Position numbers and translations under genes: made by a program. A stretch of DNA of 64,000 nt from Xanthomonas cucurbitae (GTDB lineage Bacteria > Pseudomonadota > Gammaproteobacteria > Xanthomonadales > Xanthomonadaceae). Numbering within the stretch: the stretch's first letter is position 1; every line of letters begins with the position of its first letter. Under the pieces are notes generated by a model, which worked only from the letters and a program-made list of their open reading frames with translations, made no database searches and was not told the origin of the DNA. Below, piece after piece: positions 3,951 to 37,634 of this stretch. The stretch spans positions 62,001-126,000 of the forward strand of contig NZ_MDED01000003.1 of the NCBI RefSeq assembly GCF_002939885.1, read 5' to 3'.

Positions 3951-5756
3951 CTACTTATCCATCTGCAGGACAGCCAGGAAGGCCTCCTGCGGAATCTCCA
4001 CGCGGCCGACCTGCTTCATGCGCTTCTTGCCTTCCTTCTGCTTTTCCAGCAGCTTTTTCTTGCGCGAGACGTCGCCACCATAGCACTTGGCCAGCACGTT
4101 CTTGCGCATCGCCTTGACCGTGGAGCGCGAGATGATCTGCGAGCCGATCGCCGCCTGGATCGCCACGTCGAACATCTGCCGCGGGATCAGCTCCTTCATC
4201 TTTTCGCACAGCTCGCGGCCGCGCCGGTCGGCGTGGCTGCGGTGCACGATCAGCGACAGCGCATCGACCTTGTCGCCGTTGATCAGCACGTCCACGCGCA
4301 CGAACGGGCCGGCATCGAACCGCACGAAGTGGTAATCCAGCGAGGCATAGCCACGGCTGACCGACTTGAGCTTGTCGAAGAAATCCAGCACCACCTCGGC
4401 CATCGGCAGCTCGTAGCTGATCTGCACCTGGCTCCCCAGGTAGTTGATGCCGATCTGGGTGCCGCGCTTTTCCTCGCACAGCTTGATGATGTTGCCGATG
4501 TATTCTTCGGGCGTCAGCACGTTGGCGCGGATGATCGGCTCGCGGATCTCCTCCACCAGGTTCAACTGCGGCAACTTGGCCGGGTTGTCCATGTTGATGA
4601 CCGAGCCATCGGTCTTGAGCACTTCGTACACCACGGTCGGCGCGGTGCTGATGAGATCCAGGTTGTACTCGCGCTCCAGCCGCTCCTGCACGATCTCCAT
4701 GTGCAGCATGCCCAAAAAGCCGCAGCGGAAGCCGAAGCCCATCGCCTCGGAGCTTTCCGGCTCGAAGCGCAGCGCCGCATCGTTCAGGCGCAGCTTGCCC
4801 AGCGCCTCGCGCAGGTCCGGGTAGTCCTCGGCATCGACCGGAAACAGGCCGGCGAACACGCGCGGCTGCATTTCCTGGAAGCCGGGCAAGGCATGCGGGG
4901 CGGGGTCGCCGGCCAGGGTCAGGGTGTCGCCGACCGGCGCACCGTGCACGTCCTTGATCGAGGCATTGATCCAGCCCACTTCGCCGGCGCCCAGGGCCGC
5001 CAGCTCCTTGCGCTTGGGCGTGAACACGCCGACCTTGTCCACCAGATGCGTGCGGCCGGTGGACATCACCAGGATCTTGCTGCCTGGCTTGATCTGGCCC
5101 TGCATCACGCGCACCAGAGAGACCACGCCCAGGTAGTTGTCGAACCAGGAATCGATGATGAGCGCCTGCAATTTATCGGTATCGCGCGGGGTCGGCGGCG
5201 GAATGCGCTGCACGATGGCTTCCAGCACCAGATCGATGTTCAGGCCGGTCTTGGCGCTGACCGCCACCGCGTCTTCGGCATCGATGCCGATCACCGCTTC
5301 GATCTCGGCCTTGGCGCGGTCGACGTCGGCGGTGTGCAGGTCGATCTTGTTGAGCACCGGCACCACTTCCAGGCCCTGCTCCACTGCCGTGTAGCAGTTG
5401 GCCACCGACTGCGCTTCCACGCCCTGCGCCGCATCCACCACCAGCAGCGCGCCTTCGCAGGCAGCCAGCGAGCGGCTGACTTCATAGGAGAAGTCCACAT
5501 GCCCGGGGGTGTCGATGAAGTTCAGGTGGTAGGTCTGCCCGTCCTTGGCGGTATACGGCAGGGACACCGACTGCGCCTTGATGGTGATGCCGCGCTCGCG
5601 CTCGATCGGGTTGGAGTCCAGCACCTGGGCCTCCATCTCGCGCGCCTGCAGGCCGCCACACAACTGGATGATCCGGTCGGCCAGGGTCGATTTACCGTGG
5701 TCGACGTGGGCAATGATGGAGAAATTGCGGATGTTCCGCATTGAATCAGAGGACAT
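3951..5756 (-). CDS. lepA: Elongation factor 4 (LepA), back-translocating GTPase
   Basis: 601 aa (596 if ATG 5741 is used). The N-terminal GTPase domain has [17 protein letters not shown] and NKID; elongation-factor domains follow, and the C-terminus has the LepA-specific end [23 protein letters not shown]. LepA acts on the ribosome during initiation or stalled elongation and associates with the membrane. The start at 5756 ([12 protein letters not shown]) is kept because related Xanthomonas proteins begin similarly; the internal ATG has no better ribosome-binding site. Confidence 0.96.
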
Positions 5757-5818
5757 TGAGGTGGGCGCCGGCGCAGCCGTCGTCAGGGTAACGCAGCATT
5801 ATCGCACGGCCAGCCCCG

Positions 5819-5940
5819 TTGGGGCCGGGGAATCGGGAATCGGGAGTGGGGAATCGGAAAAGCAAGACGAGCCATCGCCTCGCGGACCCGCTCTTGCTCT
5901 TGCTCTTGCCCATTCCCGATTCCCGATTCTCCATTCCCTC
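5819..5940. repeat. Heptamer-flanked palindromic element, copy 1 of a tandem pair
   Basis: A 122-base unit: TTGGGGCCGGGG, then GAATCGG-type heptamers, a core with GCAAGACGAGCC and three CTCTTG units, then CCCGATTCCCGATTC and a terminal CCATTCCCTC. The ends are inverted relative to each other. It lies between lepA and mucD. Confidence 0.85.
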
Positions 5941-6068
5941 TTGGGGCCGGGAATTGGGAATCGGGAGTGGGGAATCGGAAAAGCAAGACGAGCCATCGCC
6001 TCGCGGACCCGCTCTTGCTCTTGCTCTTGCCCATTCCCGATTCCCGATTCCCGATTCTCCATTCCCTC
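5941..6068. repeat. Heptamer-flanked palindromic element, copy 2 of a tandem pair
   Basis: Nearly identical to the adjacent 5819-5940 unit but 128 bases long: it has one additional GATTCCC heptamer on the right side, one fewer G in the left GGGG run and one G-to-T change (GAATTGGG). It ends two bases before the mucD stop codon. The difference in heptamer number is direct evidence of slippage within this family. Confidence 0.85.
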
Positions 6069-6070
6069 CC

Positions 6071-7654
6071 TTAGCCGCCGGCCTTCAGGGCCACATAGCT
6101 GGTCGCCGTGCCGTCGGTGACCAGCAGCATGACCACGTCGCCCTTCTTGTAGCTGGACAGCGCGCGGTTGAGGTCGGCGACGCTGCCCACCTTGGTGCGG
6201 GCGACGCGGGCGATGACCAGGCCCGGCGACAGCGGCGGCTGGGTGCTGCGCGCGGCGGCGCCGGTGACTGCCGCGATCCGCACGCCCTCGCCCGCCGCAA
6301 GGCCCAGGCGGCTGCGCTCGGCGGCCGTCAGGTCGGCCACCTGCAGGCCGAGCAAGGCCACGCTGGCCGGGGCCTCCGGCGTGGCATCGGCGGCGGCGGT
6401 GCGCGGTGCGGCGTCTTCGCTGCCATCCTGCAACGGCGCCAGGGTGACGCTGACCTGGCGCGGCTTGCCGTCGCGCAGCACGTCCAGGACGACCTTGGTG
6501 CCTGGTGCCAGCAGGCCGATCATCGGCGGCAGATCGCTGGAGGCCTCGATCGGCTTGCCATTGACCGCACGGATCACATCACCCACCTCGACCCCGGCCT
6601 TGGCAGCCGGGCTACCGGCAGGTATGTCGTTGACCAGCGCACCACGCGTATCCGGCAGCCCCAGGCCCTGTGCCTTCAACGCATCGATCGCGCCAACCTG
6701 CACCCCCAGCATGCCGCGACTCACGCGCCCGGTCGCCTTGATCTGCTCGGCGGCGCCGAAGGCCAGGTCGATCGGGATCGCGAAGCTGATCCCCATGTAG
6801 CCGCCGGAGGCGGAGAAGATCTGCGAATTGATGCCGACCACTTCACCGCGGGTATTGAGCAGCGGGCCGCCGGAGTTGCCCTGGTTGATCGCCACGTCGG
6901 TCTGGATGAAGGGCACGTAGCGCTGGTCCGCATACGGATTGCTGCGGCCGGTGGCACTGACGATGCCGGCAGTGACCGAGTGGTCCAGGCCGAACGGCGA
7001 GCCGATCGCCACCACCCACTGGCCCGGCTTGAGCGTGTTGGAATCGCCCAGGCGCACGGTCGGCAGGCCCTTGGCCTCGATCTTCAGCAGCGCCACGTCG
7101 TACTGCGCGTCGCTGCCCACCACCTTGGCCTTGAACTCACGACGGTCGGTCAGCTTGACGGTGACTTCGCTGGCGCCATCGACCACATGGTGATTGGTCA
7201 GCACATAGCCGTCGGCGGAAATGATGAAGCCCGATCCCATCGACTTGCCAGCGATGCCGCCATCGTCATCGCCACCACCCGGCCCCCGACGTGGGCCGCC
7301 CGGCATCTGGAAATCCGGGCCGAAAAAGCGCTTGAAGAATTCCGGCATCTGCTCGTCGTCGGGCATCGCCCCGCCGCCACGGCCACCCGGGCCGCTGCGC
7401 TGCTGCCGCGCCATCGCATCCTTGCGGGTAATGGTGGTTTCGATATTGACCACGCCCGGGCCGACCTGCTCGACCAGGTTGGTGAAGTCCGGCAAGCCCG
7501 CCACCAACTGTGGCGCCGGGGTGGTGCTGCGGTTGGCGGCGATCGGCGCACTGGCCTTGGCCGGTGCCGACGGCGGCGTCTGCTGGGCACAGGCTGCCAG
7601 CGGCAAAGTCATGGCGATCAGGCCAAACATCTGGGTACGCATACGGTGATTCAT
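6071..7654 (-). CDS. mucD: MucD/DegP-type periplasmic serine protease (HtrA family), predicted lipoprotein
   Basis: 527 aa from ATG 7654, which follows GGAGGC. The signal peptide ends in the lipobox LAAC, giving a lipidated C22, which is unusual for classical DegP. The trypsin-like domain has the triad H156 (TNHHVVD), D186 (YDVALL) and S261 (NQGNSGGPL). A Gly/Asp-rich loop (about 90-135) precedes it. A PDZ domain follows (GMLGVQV to VLRDGKPRQVSV) and a second, more degenerate one ends the protein. It degrades misfolded envelope proteins and in this genus forms an envelope-stress unit with rseA and rpoE. The gap from rseA is 109 bases. Confidence 0.93.
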   Translation of the reverse strand: MNHRMRTQMFGLIAMTLPLAACAQQTPPSAPAKASAPIAANRSTTPAPQLVAGLPDFTNLVEQVGPGVVNIETTITRKDAMARQQRSGPGGRGGGAMPDDEQMPEFFKRFFGPDFQMPGGPRRGPGGGDDDGGIAGKSMGSGFIISADGYVLTNHHVVDGASEVTVKLTDRREFKAKVVGSDAQYDVALLKIEAKGLPTVRLGDSNTLKPGQWVVAIGSPFGLDHSVTAGIVSATGRSNPYADQRYVPFIQTDVAINQGNSGGPLLNTRGEVVGINSQIFSASGGYMGISFAIPIDLAFGAAEQIKATGRVSRGMLGVQVGAIDALKAQGLGLPDTRGALVNDIPAGSPAAKAGVEVGDVIRAVNGKPIEASSDLPPMIGLLAPGTKVVLDVLRDGKPRQVSVTLAPLQDGSEDAAPRTAAADATPEAPASVALLGLQVADLTAAERSRLGLAAGEGVRIAAVTGAAARSTQPPLSPGLVIARVARTKVGSVADLNRALSSYKKGDVVMLLVTDGTATSYVALKAGG

Positions 7655-7763
7655 CGAGTTGCCTCCGATGGCAGGGCGACAGGAACCGGAACCCGTGCAG
7701 CGACACGGGTCCGACAAGATAATGGGAGGGAGGGCGCCGAATGGATGAAGATCGGCCGCCGGG

Positions 7764-8633
7764 TCAGTGCTGCAGGCCCTGCGCCGACGGCGGCAGGCTG
7801 GGTTGCGCAGTCCGGACCGCCTGCGGCGCTGGTTCGAACGGATAGAACGCCGGGCCCTGGCGGCTCTGGCTGAAACTGGCGTTGAGCGGGCTGTCGCCAG
7901 CGCCGGACAGTGCCGCGCGCGGCCAGGGACGCGCCTGCAAGGTGGTATCCGGGTGCGTGAACGGGTTGGACGATAACGCCGGGTTCGCCGCAGCCGGGGT
8001 GGCAGCAGCCATCCTCTGCGCCGGCGCCTGCTGCTGGCGCGCGGCCACACCGCGCGCCACCTGCTGGTTGCGGGTGGCGCCGCTGCGGCGCGTGGAGGCC
8101 AGCGCAGCGGCCGGGACGGCGGCAACAAGCGCGCCGCCGTCGCCAGGATTGGCCGGGGCGGGCGTTGCCGGCGCCTTTGGCGCGACCGGCGGTTGCACGG
8201 CGGCAGGCAGCTGCGCCGCGGTGGCATACACCGGCACCTCGGTCACCGTCGGGGCCGGTTCCGGCAAGCGCTCGCGCGCCATGAACATGGCGATCGCCGC
8301 GACCGACGCGGCAATCGCCGCGCCACCACCCCACCGCCAGCGTGCGGCCGCGCGCGGCGCCGGCTGTGGCAGAGGGGCAGGCTCATCGGCAATCGCGCTG
8401 CGCACGCGCGCGGCGAAATCCAGCGGTGCCGGCGCACTGGCCGCGCCGCGCAACACATCGCCGCACAGCTGCCAACGTTCGTGGCAGCCGGCGAGTTCGT
8501 CGTCGTGGGCCAGCCGGCGCAACAGGAAGCGCGATTCGTCCGCGCTCAGCTCGCCATCCACCAGCGCGGACAACTGCTGCCGGTAGTGGCGGTCGAACTT
8601 ATCGGTGGTGGACATATCGGGGTGATGGCTCAT
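7764..8633 (-). CDS. rseA: Anti-sigma-E factor RseA/MucA
   Basis: 289 aa inner-membrane anti-sigma factor. The N-terminal cytoplasmic RseA domain is plain (QLSALVDGELSADESRFLLRRLAHDDEL, given here as landmarks), followed by one membrane helix at about residues 95-115 and a long Ala/Pro/Gln-rich periplasmic region. It should hold RpoE inactive until proteolysis under envelope stress. The ATG at 8633 overlaps the rpoE stop by four bases (ATGA), giving coupled, near-stoichiometric synthesis; the second ATG at 8615 lacks this advantage. The periplasmic part is low-complexity and poorly conserved in the family. Confidence 0.9.
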   Translation of the reverse strand: MSHHPDMSTTDKFDRHYRQQLSALVDGELSADESRFLLRRLAHDDELAGCHERWQLCGDVLRGAASAPAPLDFAARVRSAIADEPAPLPQPAPRAAARWRWGGGAAIAASVAAIAMFMARERLPEPAPTVTEVPVYATAAQLPAAVQPPVAPKAPATPAPANPGDGGALVAAVPAAALASTRRSGATRNQQVARGVAARQQQAPAQRMAAATPAAANPALSSNPFTHPDTTLQARPWPRAALSGAGDSPLNASFSQSRQGPAFYPFEPAPQAVRTAQPSLPPSAQGLQH

Positions 8634-9250
8634 ACGCGGTGTCGCTCACGGGTAGCGCTTTCGGTCTCCAGCAGAGGCCGCAGCTCGATGTCGATGGCCT
8701 CGCGCGCTCGGAAGATGCGCGAGCGCACCGTTCCGATCGGGCAATCCATCTTTCGCGCGATGTCTTCGTAACTCAGGCCTTCCACCTCGCGCAGAGTGAT
8801 GGCCAACCGGAGTTCTTCCGGCAGGGCTTGGACCGCGCGCATCACCGTTTGTTCCAGCTCCTGTCGCATCAGTTCACGCTCCGGGGTGTCGGTGTCGCGC
8901 AACCGGGTGGCCCCATCGAACTGCTCGGCATCGCTGATCTCGATGTCGTCGGTGGGCGGCCGGCGGTTGTGCGCAACCAGATGGTTCTTGGCGGTGTTGA
9001 CGGCAATGCGGTGCAACCATGTATAGAACTGCGAGTCGCCGCGGAAACTGTTGATCGCGCGGTACGCGCGCACAAACGTGTCCTGGGCCACATCCTGGCA
9101 TTCGCTCCAGTCGGCGATGTAGCGCCCGATCAAGGCGACGATCCTGTGCTGGTACTTGCGCACCAGCCCATCGAACGCCGCGCTCTCGCCGCGCTGCACG
9201 CGCCGGACCAGTTCCAGGTCCAGCTCCTGAGGTGTATCGACTTCGGCCAT
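8630..9250 (-). CDS. rpoE: RNA polymerase sigma-E factor (ECF)
   Basis: 206 aa ECF sigma factor. Region 2 includes YQHRIVALIGRYI, the DVAQDTFVRAYR stretch and FYTWLHRIAVNTAKN; region 4 carries LREVEGLSYEDIARKMDCPIGTVRSRIFRARE, the helix-turn-helix that reads the -35 element. The frame stays open to 9343, but ATG 9250 is chosen because the protein then starts at the conserved MAEVDTPQELDLELV and because a sigma-E-type promoter lies at 9290-9316, inside the longer version. It heads the rpoE-rseA-mucD unit. Confidence 0.95.
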   Translation of the reverse strand: MAEVDTPQELDLELVRRVQRGESAAFDGLVRKYQHRIVALIGRYIADWSECQDVAQDTFVRAYRAINSFRGDSQFYTWLHRIAVNTAKNHLVAHNRRPPTDDIEISDAEQFDGATRLRDTDTPERELMRQELEQTVMRAVQALPEELRLAITLREVEGLSYEDIARKMDCPIGTVRSRIFRAREAIDIELRPLLETESATRERHRV

Positions 9251-9289
9251 GGTGGGCCGCACTCCTGTCAGCCCACCGAAGTCGGGCAA

Positions 9290-9316
9290 TGAGACCGCGA
9301 TTGAAGAGGAAAGTTC
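9290..9316 (-). promoter_or_regulatory. Sigma-E-dependent promoter of rpoE
   Basis: On the minus strand GAACTT (9316-9311) is followed after exactly 16 bases by TCTCA (9294-9290). The sigma-E consensus is GAACTT-N16-TCTGA, so only one base differs. Transcription would begin around 9283, some 30 bases before the rpoE ATG. It predicts positive autoregulation of the operon. Confidence 0.75.
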
Positions 9317-9486
9317 ATACCGATCCGTCCGCGCGTCACGCATCCGGGTAGTGGTACCGATGCGTCGCCAGCGACGTCCCGCCGAGGCACGTGCCGCCCC
9401 TGTCGACAGGTATGGGCATTTGACGTGAAGGAAACAACCTCTGGATGATAACGGCCTTTCCTCACTATCGCCGGACGGCCAACCGC

Positions 9487-11565
9487 ATGCTTCCAGGTTT
9501 CGACGGGCTACGATTCAGCCACTGGCAGGCCGACCTGCGCGAGGACGGCGTGCTCGTGCTCAGCCTTGATCGCCAGGGCGCAGCGGTCAACGCATTTTCG
9601 CAGGAGGTGCTGCTCGAGCTGGGCGCACTGGTGGAACGGCTGGCACTGGACCCGCCCAAGGGCGTGGTGCTGCGCTCGGCCAAGGCCAACGGCTTCATTG
9701 CCGGGGCCGACCTCAAGGAATTCCAGGACTTCGACCGCAAGGGCACGGTCAACGACGCGATCCATCGCGGCCAGCAGGTGTTCCAGAAGCTGGCCGAACT
9801 GCCCTGCCCCACGGTGGCGGCCATCCACGGCTTCTGCATGGGCGGCGGCACCGAGATCGCGCTGGCCTGCCGCTACCGGGTGGCCTCCGACGACGGCAGC
9901 ACCCGCATCGGCCTGCCGGAAACCAAGCTCGGCATCTTCCCCGGCTGGGGCGGCAGCGCCCGCTTGCCGCGCCTGATCGGCGCACCGGCGGCGATGGACC
10001 TGATGCTGACCGGCCGCAGCGTGTCGGCCAAGGCCGCGCGTGCCCTGGGTCTAGTGGACAAGGTCGCCGCACCCCCGGTGCTGGTCGATGTGGCCGCTGC
10101 CCTGGCACTGGCCGGCACCACGCGTTCGCTCAAGCAACGTGCCACCGCCTGGGCCACCAACATCCTGCTGGCGCGCAAGCTGCTGGCCCCGCAACTGCGC
10201 AAGCAGGTCGCGCGCAAGGCGCGCAAGGCGCATTACCCGGCGCCATACGCCTTGATCGACGTGTGGGAACGCGCCGGTGGCGGCGGCATCCAGGCGCGCC
10301 TGGCCGCCGAACGCAAGGCGGTGGTCAAGCTCGCCAGCACCCCGGCCGCACGCAACCTGATCCGCATCTTCTTCCTCACCGAGCGGCTGAAGGCGCTGGG
10401 CGGCAGGGACGCGGAAGGCGCGGCGGCACCGATTCGCCATGTGCATGTGATCGGCGCCGGGGTGATGGGCGGCGATATCGCGGCATGGGCGGCCTACAAG
10501 GGCTTCGAGGTCACCCTGCAGGATCGCGAGCAGCGCTTCATCGACACCGCGCTGGGCCGTGGCGGCGAGCTGTTCGCCAAGCGGGTCAAGGACGAGACCA
10601 AACGCCCGGCGGTGGCTGCACGCCTACGGGGTGATCTGGCCGGTGCCGGGGTGGCGCAGGCGGACCTGGTGATCGAGGCGATCATCGAGAATCCGCAGGC
10701 CAAGCGCGCGCTCTACCAATCGATCGAACCGCAGCTCAAGCCCGATGCGGTGCTGACCACCAACACCTCGTCGATCCCGCTGACCGAGTTGCGCGGCCAG
10801 CTGTTGCGCCCGGCCCAGTTCGCCGGCCTGCACTACTTCAACCCGGTGGCGATGATGCCGCTGGTGGAGATCGTGCAGCACGATGGGCTGGATCCGGCCA
10901 ACGTGGCGCGCCTGGCGGCGTTCTGCAAGGCGCTGGACAAGTTGCCGGTGCCGGTGGCCGGCACTCCCGGCTTCCTGGTCAACCGCGTGCTGTTTCCGTA
11001 CCTGCTGGAAGCGGCCACTGCCTATGCCGACGGCATTCCGGGACCGGTGCTGGACAAGACCGCGGTCACGTTCGGCATGCCGATGGGGCCGATCGAGCTG
11101 ATCGACACCGTGGGCCTGGATGTGGCCGCAGGCGTCGGCGCCGAGCTGGCGCCGTTCCTGCACCTGCCGATTCCAGCCGCACTGGCGACCGTGGACCCCG
11201 GCAAGCGCGGCAAGAAGGATGGACAGGGGTTGTACAAGTGGGAGAACGGACGCGCAGTCAAACCAGAGGTGGCCAGCGGCTACGAAGTGCCGGCCGATCT
11301 GGAAGACCGCCTGGTCCTGCCACTGCTCAACGAAGCGGTGGCTTGCCTGCATGACGGGGTGGTGGCCGATGCGGACCTGCTCGACGCCGGCGTGATCTTC
11401 GGCACCGGCTTCGCCCCGTTCCGCGGCGGCCCGATCCAGCACATCCGCACCGTTGGCGCCGATGCGCTGCTGGCCCGCCTGCAGGCGCTGCATGCCCGCT
11501 ACGGCGAGCGTTTTGCGCCGCGCCCGGGCTGGGACGCGCCGCTGTTGCGCGCGCCGGTGGCCTGA
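9487..11565 (+). CDS. fadJ: Fatty-acid oxidation multifunctional enzyme (enoyl-CoA hydratase / 3-hydroxyacyl-CoA dehydrogenase), FadJ/FadB-like
   Basis: 692 aa from ATG 9487; an ATG at 9445 would add 14 residues. The N-terminal crotonase domain shows GADLKEF, CMGGGTEIALACR and PETKLGIFPGWGG. After a linker, the NAD-binding fold begins with HVIGAGVMGGDIAAW, followed by LHYFNPVAMMPLVEIV with the dehydrogenase histidine, and a C-terminal helical domain (FGMPMGPIELIDTVGLD). It would hydrate enoyl-CoA and oxidise the hydroxyacyl-CoA during beta-oxidation. No thiolase partner gene is adjacent. It stands alone between rpoE and a metal exporter and is followed by a terminator hairpin. Confidence 0.9.
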   Translation: MLPGFDGLRFSHWQADLREDGVLVLSLDRQGAAVNAFSQEVLLELGALVERLALDPPKGVVLRSAKANGFIAGADLKEFQDFDRKGTVNDAIHRGQQVFQKLAELPCPTVAAIHGFCMGGGTEIALACRYRVASDDGSTRIGLPETKLGIFPGWGGSARLPRLIGAPAAMDLMLTGRSVSAKAARALGLVDKVAAPPVLVDVAAALALAGTTRSLKQRATAWATNILLARKLLAPQLRKQVARKARKAHYPAPYALIDVWERAGGGGIQARLAAERKAVVKLASTPAARNLIRIFFLTERLKALGGRDAEGAAAPIRHVHVIGAGVMGGDIAAWAAYKGFEVTLQDREQRFIDTALGRGGELFAKRVKDETKRPAVAARLRGDLAGAGVAQADLVIEAIIENPQAKRALYQSIEPQLKPDAVLTTNTSSIPLTELRGQLLRPAQFAGLHYFNPVAMMPLVEIVQHDGLDPANVARLAAFCKALDKLPVPVAGTPGFLVNRVLFPYLLEAATAYADGIPGPVLDKTAVTFGMPMGPIELIDTVGLDVAAGVGAELAPFLHLPIPAALATVDPGKRGKKDGQGLYKWENGRAVKPEVASGYEVPADLEDRLVLPLLNEAVACLHDGVVADADLLDAGVIFGTGFAPFRGGPIQHIRTVGADALLARLQALHARYGERFAPRPGWDAPLLRAPVA

Positions 11566-29744: not shown

Positions 29745-30038
29745 CTAGGGTAGATCCACATCGCGCGGGAAATAGCGGCGAAACTTCTCTTCCCACGCCT
29801 GAAATTGTGCCAGCGTGTATTCATCCATTGGCCGTTCCACCTGTGCGGTCGCCTTGTTCTGCGCTGCGTAGGCAATGCGCTGGGACGACAATTCATCCCA
29901 TACCTTTCTGAGCGCGACAGGGTCGGAATGCGAGACCAACATCGCCTCCAGCACAGTGGCCTGCGCGATGCGCGCAGCCAGCAGGTCACTAAGCGCCTCG
30001 CTGACTGCCTGCATCCATTCCTGCTGTCGGTTATCCAT
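29745..30038 (-). CDS. Hypothetical protein, 97 aa
   Basis: Starts at ATG 30038 (MDNRQQEWMQAVSEAL) and ends in a TAG at 29745. It looks helical and amphipathic, acidic-to-neutral, with no signal peptide or membrane helix and no motif that I recognise. The C-terminal half (EYTLAQFQAWEEKFRRYFP) is aromatic and charged. It lies just downstream of the rhs remnant and might belong to that accessory island, possibly as an orphan immunity gene, but nothing in the sequence proves this. Confidence 0.5.
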   Translation of the reverse strand: MDNRQQEWMQAVSEALSDLLAARIAQATVLEAMLVSHSDPVALRKVWDELSSQRIAYAAQNKATAQVERPMDEYTLAQFQAWEEKFRRYFPRDVDLP

Positions 30039-30208
30039 GTTCGGTATCTGTACGCCGGTGTAGCTGGGCACTCTAGACCCGTCGATGACACGGCGATGTG
30101 GAGCTGATGCGAGCTTCCGCCAGCTCAGCTGCCGCATGCAGGCGCTCGGACGTACCTCTGCACCGGCCCGCAAGGCCCACCGCCCGCTACCCTTGCGCGT
30201 TCAGATTC

Positions 30209-30218: not shown

Positions 30219-30597
30219 ACGTCGATTCAGGATCGTGTTGACATTTCCATTGGCGTCGTATTGATACTCAAGCGAAGCAAAGTTTGCATCACGAACCTGT
30301 TAAGGCATCTGACTGCCATTGAGTACCAGGGAGTGGCTGACGCTATTGCCGTAGGTAAACTGGCGCGCGGCGCCATTGGGGTAATAGCCAATGCCCGATG
30401 CGTAGACGTTGCCCAAGTGATCGCGCACGTCGGTCGGTTGACCCAACGCATTGGGTGCGTAATTGACCGACAACCCAGTCGGATACACCTGATTGGCGAG
30501 CGCTCCGTTGGCATCGTAGCCATAGCCAATGGACCAGGTATACCAACTGGTCTGACCCGACGATTCGGACGTCAGCATCCGGCGCTTGGACGGCCTC
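30219..30597 (-). pseudogene. Truncated rhs fragment (displaced copy of the Rhs core)
   Basis: About 375 bases that repeat 32617-32990 of the intact rhs gene at roughly 90% identity by eye. They encode the same YD-repeat stretch (MLTSESSGQTSWYTW, NALGQPTDVRDHLGNVYASG). An in-frame TAA replaces a glutamine codon in the QMPQQVRD segment, and neither end has a start or a toxin tip. It lies downstream of the immunity gene in the same orientation, where orphan rhs modules usually sit. It is best read as the decayed remnant of an earlier toxin exchange. Confidence 0.85.
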
Positions 30598-30646: not shown

Positions 30647-31264
30647 TTACTTTTTAGTCTTACCGGCTGAAGTCTTTAGTCGTCCAACTCTCCGCATCTT
30701 TTTGACTTCTTTGCCAAGCACCGGGTCGTCTCTAAGCTCGTGCAAGAGCATCTGAGCCTTGGCGTCCTTTGATCTAGCTAGAGCAGCCAAAAGTGGGGTA
30801 CGGTCGAACCCCAAGGTGTCATCCTTAGCGATGCGGATGACATCGTCAATGACACTGTCGTCAGCAGCCACACTCAAGGCACAAGCGGCTGCCCAACGGA
30901 GGTTGTCAGGCGAGCTTGTGGCGGTGTTGAGCAAGTCGATTAAAACAGACCAATAGGGACGCGAGTCAGGCACCGCCAACGCCCGGATGATGCCTTCCTT
31001 GATTCGGCTCGGGTAACTTGGGCGTAAATGCTCAACAAGAACGGGAATGGCCTCCGGGTAGGGCTTAGCGGTATTGACCAAATCCCAAACAGACTTCACC
31101 GGGCATCCAGCAGACTCTAACGCCTGCACCAGCGGTTCTTCTGCTTTCGCCCAAGCAGCACGCTGCTTGGCCATCTCCTCGTCTCGCGCCTTGCGCATGG
31201 CCAAGTAATCTTGGTCGGCGGCTAGCTCAGCGATCAACTCAGCTGCGGTTTGTTGCTCTTTCAT
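30647..31264 (-). CDS. HEAT-repeat-like protein, presumptive immunity to the Rhs toxin
   Basis: 205 aa, cytoplasmic, no signal peptide. The middle and C-terminal parts read as consecutive helical pairs of HEAT/Armadillo type: YPEAIPVLVEHL, RIKEGIIRALAV, PDNLRWAAACALSVAADDSVIDDVIRIAKDD, PLLAALARSKDAKAQMLLHELRDD. ATG 31264 overlaps the toxin stop by four bases (ATGA), with GGAGAA upstream. That placement, immediately after the variable C-terminus, is what marks it as an immunity gene; HEAT-like immunity proteins are known in polymorphic toxin systems. Direct sequence evidence for binding the toxin is absent. Confidence 0.7.
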   Translation of the reverse strand: MKEQQTAAELIAELAADQDYLAMRKARDEEMAKQRAAWAKAEEPLVQALESAGCPVKSVWDLVNTAKPYPEAIPVLVEHLRPSYPSRIKEGIIRALAVPDSRPYWSVLIDLLNTATSSPDNLRWAAACALSVAADDSVIDDVIRIAKDDTLGFDRTPLLAALARSKDAKAQMLLHELRDDPVLGKEVKKMRRVGRLKTSAGKTKK

Positions 31265-34200
31265 CGGCAAACTTCTCCAATAACGCAGATCTTAACATCT
31301 CCCCGTTTGGCTGCCTCCTTCAAAGGACCAGAGATCTTCGTGTCGGATCGCACATAGAGATTAAAGTCACGGCCAGTTTGCTTCGAAATTTCTGCGTAGT
31401 CACGGATCTGAGCGCTGTAGCCTTGGTATTTAACATTCTTGACCTCGCTGATGACAGAATCGGTTACGCCGTCTGGAATTCGGGTTACTCCCCTAACTTC
31501 AAATGCCATCTTCGGACCAATATCGACCGCTGCACGCACAGCGCTCTCTCCAGCCTGTCCAATACGCACCATCGCCGCTCCAGCACGAGCAATCTTAACA
31601 GGCGGCAAGACTGCAGCAATCTCTAAGCCGGCACCGACCATGGTGCCACCACCCGAGGATGACCAACCCTTGTCGGCCATCTGGCTAATGCTTTCGGCTC
31701 CAAATACCGTCCAACTTGCTTTAAGGCCTGCCCAGGCAGCACACGAGACCGGACCGCACCCGTCAGCTCCGGCGTCGATCATTTGGCCGACGCTGTCTCT
31801 CCCATCCGGATCAGTGAACCGATACGGATTGTTGTTCGCATACCAGTAGCGATTGAAGTTGGCTGCCAGCACCGAGTCTGCGGCCACCGGATCCACGCTC
31901 AGGAACCGCCCCAGGTCCTGGTCGTAGTAGCGCTGCTGCATGTAGGTCAGCCCGGTCGCCCCGTCCATGGCATGACCTGTGTAGCCGATGCCATCGACCG
32001 TCTTGCCGATGGGACTGCCATACGGCTGGTAGTCGGTCCGCTCGATCACTTGACCAGCAGCATTCGTCACCGCGATCGGGCTGCCCAATGCATCGGTGTG
32101 CTGGAACTTGATCGCCCCTGCGTTACGCGTGGCGAGCAGGCTCCCGTTGAGGTAGACGTATTCGGTGTTGCCCTTGCTCGACGTTTCTGTATAGAACAGC
32201 TGACCTGCCTGCGTGTAGACCTGAACAGTCCGCGTTGTCGGTTGCCCGGCCACAGTGCGGCGGCCATACGCATCGTAGACGTAGCTCTCCTTACCCGTGA
32301 CATCTCGCAGGCGGTTGCCGTAGTCGAAGCTGTAGATCTGGCCGTTCTTGTTCTTGAGGTTGCCCTGCAGGTCGTAGCTCAACCCAACGGTGGTCGCGCC
32401 TGCATTGTTCTGAACATTGGTCAGACGGTTTCTGGCGTCATACCAGTAGTTTTTCTCACTTACCCCCGGCAGCTGTGCACTGAGCAGGTTGTCCAATACG
32501 TCGTAGGCGTATCGGTTCCAAGCATCCCCACCGAAGCGCCATGATCCAGCGTCGGTCAAGCGATCCAAACCGTCGTAAGCCATGTGCCGGTTGTAAACCG
32601 ACCCCATCTGCTGATCCAGGATCGTGATGACATTTCCATTGGCGTCGTATTGATACTCAAGCGATGCAACGCTCGCATCACGAACTTGCTGAGGCATCTG
32701 GCGGCCATTGAGCAGCAGCGAGTGGCTGACGCCATTGCCATAGGTGAACTGCCGCGCTGCGCCATTGGGGTAATAACCAATGCCCGATGCGTAGACGTTG
32801 CCCAAGTGATCGCGCACGTCGGTCGGTTGACCCAACGCATTGGGTGCGTAATTGACCGACAGCCCAGTCGGATACACCTGGCTTGCGAGCGCTCCGTTGG
32901 CATCGTAGCCGTAGCCAATGGACCAGGTATACCAGCCGGTTTGACCCGACGATTCGGACGTCAGCATCCGGCGCTTGTTGTAGTTGTAAGCATTGACAAC
33001 GGACGAGCTGCCAGCATCGTTCCATGTCGTCACTTGTGAAGGCAGTCCATCCGGCGTGTAGGTCCAGTCCTGGTTGCCATTCTTGTCAGGGAACCGCAGC
33101 GTCTTGAGACGGTTGCGGGTGTCGTAAGCGCGAGTAACCTGCCGGCCGCTTGCAGCAGCGGCATCCAAGTCGCAACTGGTGGTGCTGGGAAGGTCCAACC
33201 CGCTAGCCGACCAGGCCAGGTTGCCTGCAGCATCGTAGGCCATCACTGTTGAGCCGTTTTCGGGCTCGATCACCTTGCATAGCTGTTGGTTTGCGTCATA
33301 GACGTAGCTGCGAGCGATGGAGGCAGGTCCCTGGGGGGGCTTGACCGTTAGCAGAACTTGGCCAGAATCAGCAGTCAGGCCATTGACATCGCGTGCGATT
33401 GCCTTGAGGCGGTAGCTGCCCGCAGCCAGGTTGTTGAGAGCCACCTGATAGGGCGCGGACGCGACCGTTCCTATGAGCGCATCATTCGCGTAGAACGAGA
33501 CACTGGCCAGCCCGCCCTCTGGATCGCTGGCATTGGCCCGCACGGTGGCGTTGCCGGGCGCATAGAGTGTCTTTCCATTGACTGGCTCGGTCAGTGATAC
33601 CTGCGGTGGACGATTGACCGCCTGGACATTGATGACCTGGTTGGGACTGGCTTCACCGAACCAGGTCACGCTCTCTTGCAGCAACCTCCATTGAAAGTTG
33701 AGCGAGCCGGCCACCTGAGGCACCGCATTGAATGCGATCCGGACGGACTGCCCTGGGGGAACATCATTGGGCAACTCAACCCTGACGATGCCCCACATCC
33801 AGGTATCAGCTGGGTCGACCACCCCCAAGCGGTAGTTTGAGGACCTGCGCCAAGTGACGTTCCCGGTGTTGCGGAACATGACCTCTGCCGGATAGGACTG
33901 CCCGACGGTCATCGCTGCGGGCACGGACTGGCTGACAAATACCGAGCTACGGTCAATCGCCGGAACTCGCAGGCTTCCAGACCCTGCGATCGTATCGTTC
34001 GACGCACCCACAGGCGACAATCCGTGGATGAAGATTGCCTTACCACCGTTCTGCAGGATGAAGTTTTCATCGATTGGGAACGCGAATCGGTAATTTGCTG
34101 CCGACGTTCCGCAGGCAGCCGCTATCCCGCCGTCGCTTGGAAGATTGGCCTTGGTTGCTCCGCCAAAGTTCCCTGACCCAGCGGCGCCTCCAAGATACAT

Positions 34201-34836
34201 GTGCACATCAATGGACTGAGTGAGATTGGTGGAGCATGCCCAGCCGGAGATCACCGTGTTACTGATACCGTCAATGCTTCCTTTGATGACAGACGGAAGA
34301 AGATTGATGTAAACCGGGTAACTCACTCCACCAAACCAGGCAACGCCATCCCTCACCATTCGCCATTGAAAAAGAGTGTTTCCCGGTGTGAGAGGCGCAC
34401 GGACAGCGAAATTAAAGGTAGTGCTCGACGGATAGGCAACGCTCGTAGGCAGTTCGACACGACCGGTTCCCCAAGTCAGGTTATCCGTTGGCCCTTGGCT
34501 TCCGAGACGATAGCCCTCTTGCGGCGTCCATGCCTTCCATCCGGTATTTTGGAAAGTTATGCTTGCGGCATATGTCTGGCCCACAACCATTGTCGTCGGC
34601 ACTGAGCCGCCAATGTATTTGGAATCGTTCTCCTTTAGCTCTACCGGCGTGGGGCACTCATTGGCCGAACCGGCGGTCGATCCATCGGGGCATTTCCGCG
34701 CGGCCCATGTGGGCACGGCAATCATGCAGAGCACGATCAAGGCAGCGCTTATCCAGTATGCGGGCAACCTGCGAAGGGAGTGCGTAGGGCCTATTGAGCG
34801 CGCGCTCATCGTTGTCGATTTCTTTCGCTCGCTCAT
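31261..34836 (-). CDS. Rhs toxin protein with NBR1/Ig-like domains and C-terminal restriction-endonuclease-fold toxin (Tox-REase-7-like)
   Basis: 1191 aa. A hydrophobic export segment (about 28-45) leads to two similar Ig-like domains of NBR1 type (about 75-175 and 300-405, each with a F-x-N-T-G and Q-W-R pattern), then a Big-type Ig domain (RPPQVSLTEPVNG, about 410-500). The YD-repeat Rhs shell follows, ending with NPYRFTDPDG near residue 1010. The last ~180 residues are the variable tip: RIPD (D1122) and EVK (E1131, K1133) fit a PD-(D/E)xK nuclease. ATG 34836 overlaps the upstream rhs gene (ATGA). No PAAR or VgrG features appear, so this is not a standard type VI effector. GC content looks lower than in the neighbours. 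Confidence 0.88.
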   Translation of the reverse strand: MSERKKSTTMSARSIGPTHSLRRLPAYWISAALIVLCMIAVPTWAARKCPDGSTAGSANECPTPVELKENDSKYIGGSVPTTMVVGQTYAASITFQNTGWKAWTPQEGYRLGSQGPTDNLTWGTGRVELPTSVAYPSSTTFNFAVRAPLTPGNTLFQWRMVRDGVAWFGGVSYPVYINLLPSVIKGSIDGISNTVISGWACSTNLTQSIDVHMYLGGAAGSGNFGGATKANLPSDGGIAAACGTSAANYRFAFPIDENFILQNGGKAIFIHGLSPVGASNDTIAGSGSLRVPAIDRSSVFVSQSVPAAMTVGQSYPAEVMFRNTGNVTWRRSSNYRLGVVDPADTWMWGIVRVELPNDVPPGQSVRIAFNAVPQVAGSLNFQWRLLQESVTWFGEASPNQVINVQAVNRPPQVSLTEPVNGKTLYAPGNATVRANASDPEGGLASVSFYANDALIGTVASAPYQVALNNLAAGSYRLKAIARDVNGLTADSGQVLLTVKPPQGPASIARSYVYDANQQLCKVIEPENGSTVMAYDAAGNLAWSASGLDLPSTTSCDLDAAAASGRQVTRAYDTRNRLKTLRFPDKNGNQDWTYTPDGLPSQVTTWNDAGSSSVVNAYNYNKRRMLTSESSGQTGWYTWSIGYGYDANGALASQVYPTGLSVNYAPNALGQPTDVRDHLGNVYASGIGYYPNGAARQFTYGNGVSHSLLLNGRQMPQQVRDASVASLEYQYDANGNVITILDQQMGSVYNRHMAYDGLDRLTDAGSWRFGGDAWNRYAYDVLDNLLSAQLPGVSEKNYWYDARNRLTNVQNNAGATTVGLSYDLQGNLKNKNGQIYSFDYGNRLRDVTGKESYVYDAYGRRTVAGQPTTRTVQVYTQAGQLFYTETSSKGNTEYVYLNGSLLATRNAGAIKFQHTDALGSPIAVTNAAGQVIERTDYQPYGSPIGKTVDGIGYTGHAMDGATGLTYMQQRYYDQDLGRFLSVDPVAADSVLAANFNRYWYANNNPYRFTDPDGRDSVGQMIDAGADGCGPVSCAAWAGLKASWTVFGAESISQMADKGWSSSGGGTMVGAGLEIAAVLPPVKIARAGAAMVRIGQAGESAVRAAVDIGPKMAFEVRGVTRIPDGVTDSVISEVKNVKYQGYSAQIRDYAEISKQTGRDFNLYVRSDTKISGPLKEAAKRGDVKICVIGEVCR

Positions 34837-37634
34837 CGAGCACCTCGCTCGATCTTGATCGGCTTGCCGAAGACATCCCGGATGATGGACGTCCGGGCAG
34901 ATTCGGGTAACTCTACAAAAACGGGGGCGTCGTAGACCGGCTGGTCAAATGCTTGGTAGCTGGTCCTCGTCTGCGCGCCACGGGGGTTCGTCACCAAGGT
35001 TTGGAGACTGGGGAGATATTGAGTGACGGTCGTCAGCAGCCCCTGCTCGCTATCCTGGGATACCGCCGTCGGCCTCCCCATCACATCAAACTCAGTCCAC
35101 ACGCCAGTGTTCGCAGCTTCGCTATTGCTGGGGTACGACGCAAAGACGGCTCTTCCCTCATGGTCGTAAACGAAGCGTTTGACTCGAAGTGTTCCCGCCA
35201 CGTTTGCCGCATCGTACTCCCGAATCAGTAGCGGCTGCCAAAGCGCATCAAAGTAGGTAATTTTCTGTGCATTTCCAGTGGTCACGGTCTGGCGCCAATG
35301 GCCGGCAGCAATACCATATTCGTCACCGCCTACCCTTTCAAACGCCTGTGCCGTCGAGTTCCAAGCGGTACTGTCACCCGATGGGTAACTCGTGCCAGTT
35401 AGCCGCCCCATCGCGTCGTAGCCATAGGTGGTCGCAAATCCGTTCTCGTCGTTGGTTTGACGAATCCACCCGTTGTCGTCCACCGAGGCGGACTTGGCTG
35501 TGCCGTCGGGGTTTGCAACGGTCTGGGGGATGCCGCGCTTCCAGCCAGACAGGGTCGTTGCATTCCCGAGTCCATCCTTGACCTGGGCCAGGGTCCCATC
35601 GGGATTGTAGGTGTAGGTTGCGATCAGCTTCCCGTTGCGCCGTTGCGTCTGGGGCAACGCATTGCTGCCGTAGTCGACTTGGGAGGTGACGATGCCTGTG
35701 TTGACATTACGAGCAATGGCGGTCTGCCCCAAGACCCACGCACCGCGCTCGTCGTAGTACGTCGTATCGTCGGTGCGGCTATGCCAAGGGCTGAATCGCT
35801 CAACGCGGGTTGGCCTTGCGAACTCGTCGAAACACGGCTGACCATTGCAATCGGCGATGCGCCAAACGAACTGGTCGCCGTTATCGATCGTGATGACCTG
35901 ACGCACGGGCCGCTGCCTCGCTGCCACAGTGTTGTCCCCGTAGTCACCAGCCGGATACATGGTCCGCGCCGCGTAAGGCGCCGCATCAAAGGCTGCGTAA
36001 TCACTCACCTTGCTGCGTTTGGCCGTCGAACCGTTCCAGCCAAAGTCCTGCTGAAGTAACAGGCCTTCATTGGACCAATGGCGATTGCCGAATCGATAGC
36101 GGGTAGCTTGGCCCGCCGGGTCTTTGACTGTGATGTCTCGCGTGATGGGCGAGCCCGCGTTGCATTCGACATACTTGGATGGATCGCTTGGATTCGGATT
36201 TGTGCCCGGCTTCCAGCAATTGTTCGGGCTGCCGTAGTCGTAGGACCAAGTCAGCCCCTGCGCCGGCAAGCCGGGACCGGAGATGCGCCTGCTGGTCACA
36301 GCCATGACATAGAACTGATAGGGAATTTCTGAGTAGGCGTCCTGGATATTGCACATCCTGGGAACCCACGACCTCCCCATCAGCATGGAGTTGAGGGTGT
36401 AGTCACTGCGAGCGCCGGTAGGGGCAGTGATGCTGCCTACGACATTGCTGCGGGACCACGGGCGGATGTTGTCGCACCCTGGCGGCTGGCCGTAGGTCAC
36501 GCGTGCACGGGACAAAGCAACCAGATCGAAGGTCCAGCCGCTGCCGTCAGGCAGCGTCACTGTATCCACAGTATCGCTGTAGCCATAAGACCAAGTTCTA
36601 CCTCCGGTGCTCACGGAGGTGATGATGCTGCCATCCCCGCCGGCATACGATAGGTCGATGCGACGCCCATCGCTGGCGACAATGCTTAGAAGTTGCCACG
36701 GAGCCCCGGGATTCCAGTTGTAGACCACAGTGTTGCCAAAGCGATCGGTCACTCGCGTGGGATAGATCAAGACCTCTTTGCGAACCAGGATGTAGTTTTT
36801 GGCTACCATTGGAACGATGTTACCGATGCCGGCTGTTCTCATGCCCACTCCGCCAGCGGACGCCATGCCAACGGAATTGGCCTGCGGAGCAGGCGACGAT
36901 TTGCTCAAGGGCGGATAGGAGCGCGACACCATATGGTTGAACGCGTACACGCTGCCTTGTGTGTCGACCAGTTCAAACCCTTCCCCGCGCGCACTCGTCT
37001 CGCTCGCTCCATCAAGCGAGGCCAGGCAACGCACTGCGGAGCCGTCCTTTAAGACGATGGGGTAGGTTCGACCGTCGCTTGGGCGGAGCGCTTGCGCCGA
37101 TGCTTGCAGTAGCTCTTGATCGCCGCTTCCTGGCCGGTAGAGAAAGCTTCCCCGCCAGAATTCGGAAGGATCGAAAAAGCCGCCCTGGTTCTCGAACGCC
37201 GGAGGAACGCTGTAGCGACTGCATCGGTTGTAAGCCGTCTCCCTGGTCCCGTTGACTACCCAGCCATCCGGCGCGATGTTCCCACCAGGGAAGCCGAAAA
37301 CCCCGTGCATGTAAGGAATATCCAGGTCCCAGAGCTTGAAGTGTCCCTTTGTGGGACTGCCGACGGAAAACCGACGACCAATGCGCACCTGCAAGGCATT
37401 GTTGCCCTTCAGGTCCACGTCGGTTTGAACGATCTCCATCGACCCGGTGTACAGGTTGATGTTTTCCCCAAACAGCTGGCCGCCGGGGCTCCTTACCACT
37501 GCGCCCGATTGGATCAACTTGCCATAGTCGTCGTAGACATCCTCGGCAATGCCTGCTGCAGGAAACAATCCTGCCAACGCAGCCAGCATCAATCCAATCG
37601 CGCGCAGCTGGCGCCGCTCTGTGCCCAGTTCCAT
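34833..37634 (-). CDS. Rhs-repeat protein, exported, first partner of a split Rhs pair
   Basis: 933 aa with a signal peptide (LMLAALAGLFPAAGIAE). It lacks a toxin tip: the C-terminus ends at RDVFGKPIKIERGAR. An N-terminal region of about 350 residues includes GENINLYTGSMEIVQTDVDLKGNNALQVRIGR, which is like the start of other secreted Rhs/WapA-type proteins, followed by YD repeats (DRFGNTVVYNW, DAMGRLTGTSYPSG, DVMGRPTAVSQ). Its TGA overlaps the start of the toxin-bearing gene, so the two are coupled. By analogy with TcB/TcC, the two may form one cocoon; that is inference. GGAA lies seven bases before the ATG. Confidence 0.85.
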   Translation of the reverse strand: MELGTERRQLRAIGLMLAALAGLFPAAGIAEDVYDDYGKLIQSGAVVRSPGGQLFGENINLYTGSMEIVQTDVDLKGNNALQVRIGRRFSVGSPTKGHFKLWDLDIPYMHGVFGFPGGNIAPDGWVVNGTRETAYNRCSRYSVPPAFENQGGFFDPSEFWRGSFLYRPGSGDQELLQASAQALRPSDGRTYPIVLKDGSAVRCLASLDGASETSARGEGFELVDTQGSVYAFNHMVSRSYPPLSKSSPAPQANSVGMASAGGVGMRTAGIGNIVPMVAKNYILVRKEVLIYPTRVTDRFGNTVVYNWNPGAPWQLLSIVASDGRRIDLSYAGGDGSIITSVSTGGRTWSYGYSDTVDTVTLPDGSGWTFDLVALSRARVTYGQPPGCDNIRPWSRSNVVGSITAPTGARSDYTLNSMLMGRSWVPRMCNIQDAYSEIPYQFYVMAVTSRRISGPGLPAQGLTWSYDYGSPNNCWKPGTNPNPSDPSKYVECNAGSPITRDITVKDPAGQATRYRFGNRHWSNEGLLLQQDFGWNGSTAKRSKVSDYAAFDAAPYAARTMYPAGDYGDNTVAARQRPVRQVITIDNGDQFVWRIADCNGQPCFDEFARPTRVERFSPWHSRTDDTTYYDERGAWVLGQTAIARNVNTGIVTSQVDYGSNALPQTQRRNGKLIATYTYNPDGTLAQVKDGLGNATTLSGWKRGIPQTVANPDGTAKSASVDDNGWIRQTNDENGFATTYGYDAMGRLTGTSYPSGDSTAWNSTAQAFERVGGDEYGIAAGHWRQTVTTGNAQKITYFDALWQPLLIREYDAANVAGTLRVKRFVYDHEGRAVFASYPSNSEAANTGVWTEFDVMGRPTAVSQDSEQGLLTTVTQYLPSLQTLVTNPRGAQTRTSYQAFDQPVYDAPVFVELPESARTSIIRDVFGKPIKIERGAR

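What the first reader, a model, noticed from the sequence alone, without database searches (positions are those of the whole stretch)
30647..37634. Split, exported Rhs pair with a PD-(D/E)xK tip and HEAT-like immunity gene
Two rhs genes overlap by ATGA, each has its own export signal, and only the second carries a variable C-terminus. Its tip has D1122 (RIPD), E1131 and K1133 (EVK), fitting Tox-REase-7-type nucleases, and the next gene overlaps by ATGA as immunity genes do. No PAAR, VgrG or TcA-like gene is present in the window, so delivery cannot be the usual type VI route. The two-protein arrangement recalls TcB/TcC cocoons but with signal peptides on both. I know of no description of this exact layout; novelty itself is not proven by the sequence.
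Basis: partly seen in the sequence, partly recalled or inferred. Interest (0 to 1): 0.85.

Follow-up and report, generated by a model that had tools for sequence, protein, structure and literature searches.

The report
Two-piece exported Rhs nuclease bacteriocin
A Xanthomonas bacterium carries what looks like a toxin against rival bacteria whose protein shell is made as two separately exported pieces, next to a matching antidote gene; relatives cut the same shell at other joints, which suggests that such toxins are put together outside the cell interior.

Summary
In detail: two rhs genes overlap by ATGA, each with a Sec-type signal; the second ends in a Tox-REase-7 nuclease (PF15649, E 1.3e-17; D1122, E1131, K1133) and a HEAT-like gene overlaps it by ATGA. 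Toxin-immunity pairing holds: of 8 other loci with this nuclease, 7 have a relative of the immunity gene next door, one on an actinobacterial plasmid; 1 (G204) does not. Only this one of 35 Xanthomonas genomes has the immunity gene, and orthologues with 91-96% identical cores carry unrelated tips. The split is not decay: in 29 fused relatives the halves join over 5-17 residues, where the window's chain is cut. Of 81 loci (window included) 29 are fused, 11 are cut like the window with a signal on the second piece, 25 are cut later (shell, then core plus tip); 39 of 47 detached tip pieces have a signal. The later cut matches Bcn-A, a published type-II-secreted Xanthomonas bacteriocin. Best reading: a Bcn-A-like exported toxin whose shell assembles outside the cytoplasm. 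Tip, HEAT immunity and Sec-exported Rhs toxins were known; recurrent fission with a signal on each piece seems new.

The parts
34833..37634 (-). rhs1 (933 aa): signal peptide plus first part of the Rhs/YD shell (segments A and B); no variable end
   Evidence: ORF; RHS_repeat; stops 3 residues after the end of segment B
37551..37634 (-). Sec-type signal of rhs1 (about residues 1-28)
   Evidence: heuristic
31261..34836 (-). rhs2 (1191 aa): signal, Ig-like modules, second half of shell, core, toxin tip; start overlaps rhs1 stop by ATGA
   Evidence: ORF; Pfam; RHS core TIGR03696
34702..34836 (-). Sec-type signal of rhs2 (about residues 1-45; an inner ATG at residue 10 is also possible)
   Evidence: heuristic
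33337..34701 (-). Ig-like modules of rhs2 (two N_BRCA1_IG stretches and Big_7, within residues 46-500), absent from the junction of fused relatives
   Evidence: Pfam; junction of 5-17 residues in 29 of 29 fused relatives
32197..33327 (-). second half of the YD shell (segment C, residues 504-880)
31783..32121 (-). RHS core/plug (segment D, residues 906-1018) with near-invariant R969, D972, D982, D1009-P-x-G1012
31264..31782 (-). variable tip (residues 1019-1191): pre-toxin linker and nuclease
31321..31560 (-). Tox-REase-7 domain (PF15649, residues 1093-1172; D1122, E1131, K1133)
30647..31264 (-). HEAT-like immunity gene (205 aa, no signal by the rule), ATGA overlap with rhs2
30219..30590 (-). 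displaced rhs shell fragment (equivalent to rhs2 residues 620-743, one stop inside), remnant of an earlier exchange

Best explanation
The locus encodes a secreted antibacterial Rhs toxin made as two chains. rhs1 supplies the first part of the YD-repeat shell; rhs2 supplies the rest of the shell, the plug and a PD-(D/E)xK nuclease tip. Both chains are made in coupled translation, exported by Sec, fold in the oxidising periplasm and close there into one cocoon around the tip, with the Ig-like modules of rhs2 outside. The complex leaves the cell through the Xps-type type II system, like Bcn-A, reaches another bacterium and releases the nuclease, which must get into its cytoplasm by a step not known. 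The HEAT-like protein stays in the producer's cytoplasm and blocks kin toxin. Shown by sequence: gene layout, domain content, tip exchange, tip-immunity linkage, place of the cut, recurrence of cuts. Inferred: signal-peptide function, coupled translation, association of the pieces, T2SS release, nuclease activity, target.
For: Tip: PF15649 E 1.3e-17; GxxxE, I/VxD, E[VI]KN and Q align in the tips examined, 9 rows with the window, the motif that Zhang 2012 gives for Tox-REase-7. Immunity: relative directly downstream in 6 of 6 other Tox-REase-7 places among 398 order genomes and beside the tip in the one plasmid record with a tip match; imm in 1 of 35 genus genomes. Exchange: 81 core+tip units fall into 60 tip clusters; 92 of 94 pairs with cores at least 75% identical have unrelated tips. 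One shell cut in two: B-C gap 5-17 residues in 29 of 29 fused ORFs; in 11 of 11 loci cut between B and C the first protein ends 3-5 residues after B. Signals: 39 of 47 detached tip-bearing pieces against 5 of 29 fused ORFs with any signal-like start near either junction. Export: rhs1 C138, C203, C387, C428 in 48 of 48 rows, rhs2 C520 in 47 of 47 rows that reach it. Recurrent cuts: 22 changes of layout on a tree of 66 of the 81 loci; the two-gene class 7 changes, bootstrap range 6-7. Precedent: Bcn-A needs ORFA (1398 aa Rhs), ORF2 and ORF4 (290 aa, signal, RhsA/WapA-like), has an immunity ORF, and lost activity in a T2SS xpsD mutant (PMC7259588); the layout TamB, Rhs, two small ORFs, signal+core+tip is in L039 and L040. 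GspD over cut-off in 35 of 35 genus genomes.
Against: No structure, interaction or activity was tested. 8 of 47 detached tip pieces had no signal by my rule, and some calls of the rule look doubtful (L074, L109, L126). The tip relative in G204 has an unrelated gene downstream. Rhizobium plasmids hold an imm relative without a tip. L125 is cut inside C with no signal on the second piece. The window locus is not at the TamB site, lacks the small ORFs of which one (ORF2) Bcn-A needs, and Bcn-A's own sequence was not at hand to compare. The plug reads DPDGR where the T6SS Rhs motif is DPLGL (PMC8636562), so self-cleavage is uncertain. GspD is in every genus genome searched, so it gives no correlation.
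Confidence: 0.63

Rival explanations
1. The pieces do not assemble: rhs2 alone (Ig modules, half shell, tip) is the toxin, and rhs1 is an independent exported adhesin or leftover.
For: No interaction data; rhs2 has its own signal and Ig-like modules that could bind surfaces.
Against: rhs1 is kept intact next to rhs2 in other Xanthomonas (L031, L033, L035); it corresponds to the missing first part of the same shell, cut within the 5-17-residue joint of fused forms; in Bcn-A both shell and core+tip ORFs are needed.
Confidence: 0.15
2. Surface-anchored, contact-dependent toxin like bacterial teneurins or WapA, rather than a released bacteriocin.
For: Ig-like modules are common surface parts (recalled); teneurin-like toxins are proposed to be displayed on the surface (PMC13018210).
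Against: No lipobox seen by eye; Bcn-A activity is in the supernatant and XpsD-dependent.
Confidence: 0.15
3. Delivery by the type VI system present elsewhere in the genome.
For: VipB in G000 and one PAAR protein; most rhs genes are said to lie in T6SS clusters or hcp-vgrG islands (PMC8636562).
Against: Sec-type signals on both proteins, no PAAR found in them, invariant cysteines; intact pair in G014, where no VipB was found in a genome given as 100% complete.
Confidence: 0.05
4. Insecticidal Tc-like B/C pair aimed at eukaryotes.
For: Division of a shell over two proteins resembles TcB/TcC.
Against: No SpvB/TcdB-type Pfam domain listed for rhs1; no TcA_TcB_BD match in the own genome, although that search had no positive control; immunity gene linked to the tip.
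Confidence: 0.03
5. Broken gene or assembly error.
For: Rhs loci often decay (recalled); L036/L068 and L038 here look broken.
Against: Same cut with signal and Ig modules in 11 of 81 loci, window included; no stop inside either gene.
Confidence: 0.02

Closest known systems
Bcn-A bacteriocin locus of Xanthomonas perforans (PMC7259588: abstract, outline, passages, sections 21-22 seen)
   Same: Exported Rhs shell protein plus a second Rhs-like piece with a signal, immunity ORF downstream, Xanthomonas; T2SS dependence shown there
   Different: By layout, cut after segment C (shell, then core plus tip) with two small ORFs between (one needed) and TamB upstream; the window is cut between B and C, has Ig modules on the second piece, no small ORFs and lies by mutS. 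In the passages seen the authors link ORF4 with Bcn-A loosely but do not describe one divided shell; sequences not compared here
TcB/TcC part of ABC toxins (PMC11067744: abstract and outline seen; rest recalled)
   Same: One Rhs shell made from two proteins, variable toxin at the end of the second
   Different: No TcA or SpvB part found here, each piece has a signal, linked immunity gene
Tox-REase-7 with HEAT immunity (PMC3482391: passages seen)
   Same: Same toxin family, motif and immunity type
   Different: Nothing at the level of the tip
Bacterial teneurin-like toxins (PMC13018210: abstract, outline, passages, sections 6 and 10 seen)
   Same: YD-shell polymorphic toxins, many with signals, with immunity genes
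   Different: Superfold of FN-plug, NHL and YD-shell, mostly with a TIP domain; no two-chain form in the passages seen
T6SS Rhs effectors (PMC8636562: passages seen)
   Same: YD shell, plug with conserved Asp, C-terminal toxin
   Different: PAAR/EagR delivery, DPLGL cleavage motif, one chain before self-cleavage
C-terminal tip displacement in rhs loci (PMC2935791: passages seen)
   Same: Unrelated tips on near-identical cores and a displaced core fragment behind the gene
   Different: Described there in Enterobacteriaceae

Membership tests
Rhs polymorphic toxin | YD/RHS repeats and RHS core | tested here: met
Rhs polymorphic toxin | variable C-terminal toxin on a conserved core | tested here: met
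Rhs polymorphic toxin | adjacent specific immunity gene | tested here: inconclusive
   linkage met in 7 of 8 other loci (exception L137); neutralisation not tested
Tox-REase-7 | PF15649 and GxxxE, IxD, ExK, Q | tested here: met
Imm-HEAT | HEAT repeats beside Tox-REase-7 | tested here: inconclusive
   HEAT_2 weak, under cut-off; relative annotated as HEAT repeat protein; linkage
Bcn-A type bacteriocin | shell piece and tip piece, both with a signal | tested here: met
   by the heuristic rule
Bcn-A type bacteriocin | cut after segment C, two small ORFs, TamB upstream | tested here: not met
   window is cut between B and C with overlapping genes; MutS is the gene upstream and a fucosidase the next recognisable one downstream
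Bcn-A type bacteriocin | XpsD-dependent secretion | not testable with these tools
   GspD present
T6SS Rhs effector | N-terminal PAAR domain | tested here: not met
   none listed for rhs1 or rhs2
TcB/TcC | SpvB/TcdB domains and a TcA partner | tested here: inconclusive
   no such domain listed for rhs1; TcA search without positive control
Bacterial teneurin-like protein | FN-plug, NHL and YD-shell in one chain | tested here: not met
   two chains; TEN_YD-shell only 13.5 bits, under its cut-off of 50, in rhs1
Known anti-phage defence | PADLOC model match | tested here: not met
   0 families for the three proteins at E 0.01

The most novel reading that the evidence does not exclude
In Xanthomonadales and some relatives, Rhs cocoons are modular kits built outside the cytoplasm: the shell is cut at any of at least three joints into two or three separately exported pieces that close in the periplasm, and the core-plus-tip piece is an exchangeable cartridge loaded after export. 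Bcn-A's ORFA and ORF4 would be one such divided cocoon, so toxin packaging in Rhs shells need not be a folding event within one chain in the cytoplasm.
Probability: 0.5. Interest if true: 0.78.

Novelty: new variant of a known kind. Interest (0 to 1): 0.6.

Why it matters
Rhs shells are mostly studied as single-chain capsules for T6SS or as the Tc B/C pair. Repeated cutting of an exported Rhs shell, with a signal on the tip piece, predicts assembly and cargo loading in the periplasm and gives a mechanism for a bacteriocin (Bcn-A) whose required ORFs had no clear joint role. It makes a clean test possible: do separately exported halves form one closed particle, and is it a type II substrate?

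Tried and rejected
T6SS as the carrier, Tc toxin, broken gene and anti-phage defence were considered and set aside (see rivals). A link of the system with T2SS presence could not be tested by co-occurrence because GspD is in 35 of 35 genus genomes. The window tip clustered with tips of L090 and L129, but by the sequences printed only the pre-toxin linker is shared: their toxin ends differ and no imm relative was found in those loci; they are therefore not among the 8 loci with the nuclease. A TcA search rang in no control genome and so shows nothing. Structure prediction of rhs2 and rhs1 (alignments A2, A3) never ran, so no fold comparison was made. Signal peptides rest on a home-made rule; no SignalP was at hand. 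Paper searches on this subject (eight in all) showed Bcn-A and the Zhang survey as the nearest; absence from print is claimed only for these searches in an open-access library, and of their listings I opened only the six papers named.
Full report
What is there. On the minus strand of the window lie rhs1 (34833-37634, 933 aa), rhs2 (31261-34836, 1191 aa) and a 205-aa gene (30647-31264), each joined to the next by a 4-base ATGA overlap. The flanks are MutS and CobW genes on one side and a fucosidase, a GH2 enzyme and a TonB receptor on the other. rhs1 shows only Rhs repeats; rhs2 shows two NBR1-type Ig stretches, a Big_7 Ig domain, Rhs repeats, the Rhs core and a C-terminal Tox-REase-7 domain. 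By a simple rule of my own (positive start, hydrophobic stretch, AxA-like cut) both Rhs proteins begin with a Sec-type signal and the third protein does not; the rule rings at 11 of 466 internal methionines. It is not SignalP.

The tip and its immunity gene. Tox-REase-7 is rare in the order: 7 places in 6 of 398 genomes, the own one included. In all 6 other places the gene directly downstream is a relative of the window's third gene (E 7e-16 to 7e-70). In 72,556 plasmid records the tip matches one, from Aeromicrobium, and there the neighbouring gene is again a relative, annotated as a HEAT repeat protein. Against this stand G204, found in a search of 369 class genomes, where the gene behind a tip relative is unrelated, and seven Rhizobium plasmids of one length that hold a relative of the immunity gene but no tip match. 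Nine aligned tips, the window's included, share GxxxE, I/VxD, E[VI]KN and Q, allowing for a poorly aligned start in the plasmid tip; this is the motif given for Tox-REase-7 by Zhang and colleagues, who also list HEAT repeats as its immunity protein (PMC3482391, passages). So this part is a known pair.

Tip exchange. The immunity gene is found in 1 of 35 genus genomes and in 2 of 369 class genomes, the second weakly (E 4e-4). In its Xanthomonas relatives rhs2 matches up to residue 1014-1016 and then stops, where the frame reaches that far: cores of L051, L055, L053 and L068 are 91-96% identical to the window's, their tips unrelated. Over all loci taken, 81 core+tip units make 60 tip clusters, and 92 of 94 pairs with cores at least 75% identical have unrelated tips (87 loci were given to the script, some of which may come from one genome held in two collections). 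Behind the immunity gene lies a 90-92% identical piece of the shell with one stop, as expected of displacement (PMC2935791, passages). Of 8 relatives whose tip-bearing proteins I scanned, one has a clear HNH domain (L036), one an M15 peptidase (L044), one a weak HNH match under its cut-off (L031); the other five had no recognised toxin domain. The gene after the nuclease tip has no signal in the window, in L068 (the L036 locus) and in L051 (the L031 locus), and has one after the M15 tip in L044: few cases, but fitting an immunity protein placed where the toxin acts. Over all 76 downstream candidates chosen by a loose rule, 26 had a signal.

The split. A scan of the genome collection (one genome each for 84,980 species) confirmed 276 relatives of rhs1, of which the best 80 were kept. 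I marked segments A and B (rhs1), I (Ig part), C and D (shell half and core of rhs2) in these 80 and the window. Of 81 loci, 29 are fused A-B-C-D+tip; 12 are in the class A-B | C-D+tip, of which 11 (window included) have a signal on the second piece and 1 (L125) is cut inside C without one; 25 are cut A-B-C | D+tip (23 with a signal); 7 have A-B without intact C-D, 7 have A-B-C without D within 3 kb (5 of them near the end of the locus), and 1 (L117) is cut A | B-C-D. In the 29 fused proteins 5-17 residues lie between B and C; in the 11 loci cut there the first protein stops 3-5 residues after B. All 11 signal-bearing C-D proteins have Big_7 or NBR1-type Ig domains between signal and C, next to C in some and over 100 residues before it in L077 and L122 (L051, L053 and L055 were scanned as L031, L033 and L035, the same contigs). 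Of 47 detached tip-bearing pieces 39 have a signal by my rule; of 29 fused proteins 5 have any signal-like start near either junction (9 of 435 starts). At least 18 of 37 split loci have a -4 or -1 overlap to a signal-bearing start (which lists at most four starts a locus). One unnamed Xanthomonas (L044) has three pieces, B-C, D+tip and A, in that order; A's signal was missed by the rule but looks like one by eye.

How often. On a careful tree of 66 loci built from A and B alone (the 15 loci without a complete layout were left out), the three layouts need 22 changes; the two-gene class needs 7 (6-7 in bootstrap trees, at least 4 forced by well supported branches) (quick tree: 20). Neighbours such as L070 and L088, or L089 and L098, differ in layout. 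The count cannot tell gain from loss, and recombination between loci may add to it. Either way the covalent joint is dispensable again and again while both halves are kept, which is hard to explain unless they come together after synthesis.

Export and release. Four cysteines of rhs1 are kept in 48 of 48 rows (the window and 47 of 88 available segments) and C520 of rhs2 in 47 of the 47 rows that reach it (of 50), as in proteins that fold in the periplasm. GspD is over cut-off in 35 of 35 genus genomes, twice in the own one.

Closest precedent. Bcn-A of X. perforans is a 1398-aa Rhs protein (ORFA) with small ORF2 and ORF3, a 290-aa ORF4 with signal and Rhs/WapA likeness, and immunity ORF5; ORFA, ORF2 and ORF4 were needed, activity was in the supernatant and was lost in an xpsD mutant; TamB lies upstream (PMC7259588: abstract, outline, passages, sections 21 and 22). 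L039 and L040 have that layout: TamB, a 1400- or 1401-residue open frame A-B-C, two small ORFs, then signal-D-tip. I identify them as Bcn-A-like from layout; the deposited sequence was not at hand. In this light ORFA and ORF4 are one shell cut after segment C, and the window is a second version cut between B and C. The passages seen link ORF4 loosely with Bcn-A but do not say this.

Verdict. The layout is real and looks functional: a new variant of a known kind, an exported two-piece Rhs bacteriocin with a Tox-REase-7/HEAT pair. What seems new is the repeated division of the shell with a signal on each part. Assembly in the periplasm, T2SS release, self-cleavage (plug Asp residues kept, but DPDGR in place of DPLGL) and entry into the target are inferences. 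Structure prediction could not be run (and the tries before it).

Noticed in passing
L044 (G019) 4672-11560: Bcn-A-like site (TamB upstream) with the shell in three pieces in the order B-C, D+tip, A; the tip is an M15-type peptidase and the gene behind it has a signal.
   Followed up: partly
window 31561-31782 against L090 and L129: Pre-toxin linker of the window tip is shared with two Luteimonas tips whose toxin ends differ, so exchange also happens inside the tip.
   Followed up: partly
window 30219-30590: Displaced rhs shell fragment behind the immunity gene, 90-92% identical to rhs2, without core end or tip.
   Followed up: yes
window 29748-30173: 142-aa open frame behind the displaced fragment, no Pfam or NCBIfam match that passes a cut-off.
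   Followed up: no
L151 2587-7158 (own genome, contig C11): Another Rhs-type gene of the genome, 1523 aa, signal-like start by eye, DUF6531 and Rhs repeats, one chain.
   Followed up: no
L146 (Rhizobium plasmid, and six records of the same length): Relative of the HEAT-like immunity gene without a tip match in the record, a possible orphan immunity gene.
   Followed up: partly
L066, L088, L109: Extra signal-bearing core+tip pieces on the other side of one A-B-C shell gene, as if one shell served several cartridges.
   Followed up: no
L049 (G049): Order reversed: a C-D+tip frame upstream of a signal-bearing A-B frame; the tip looks by eye like a HINT-type domain.
   Followed up: no
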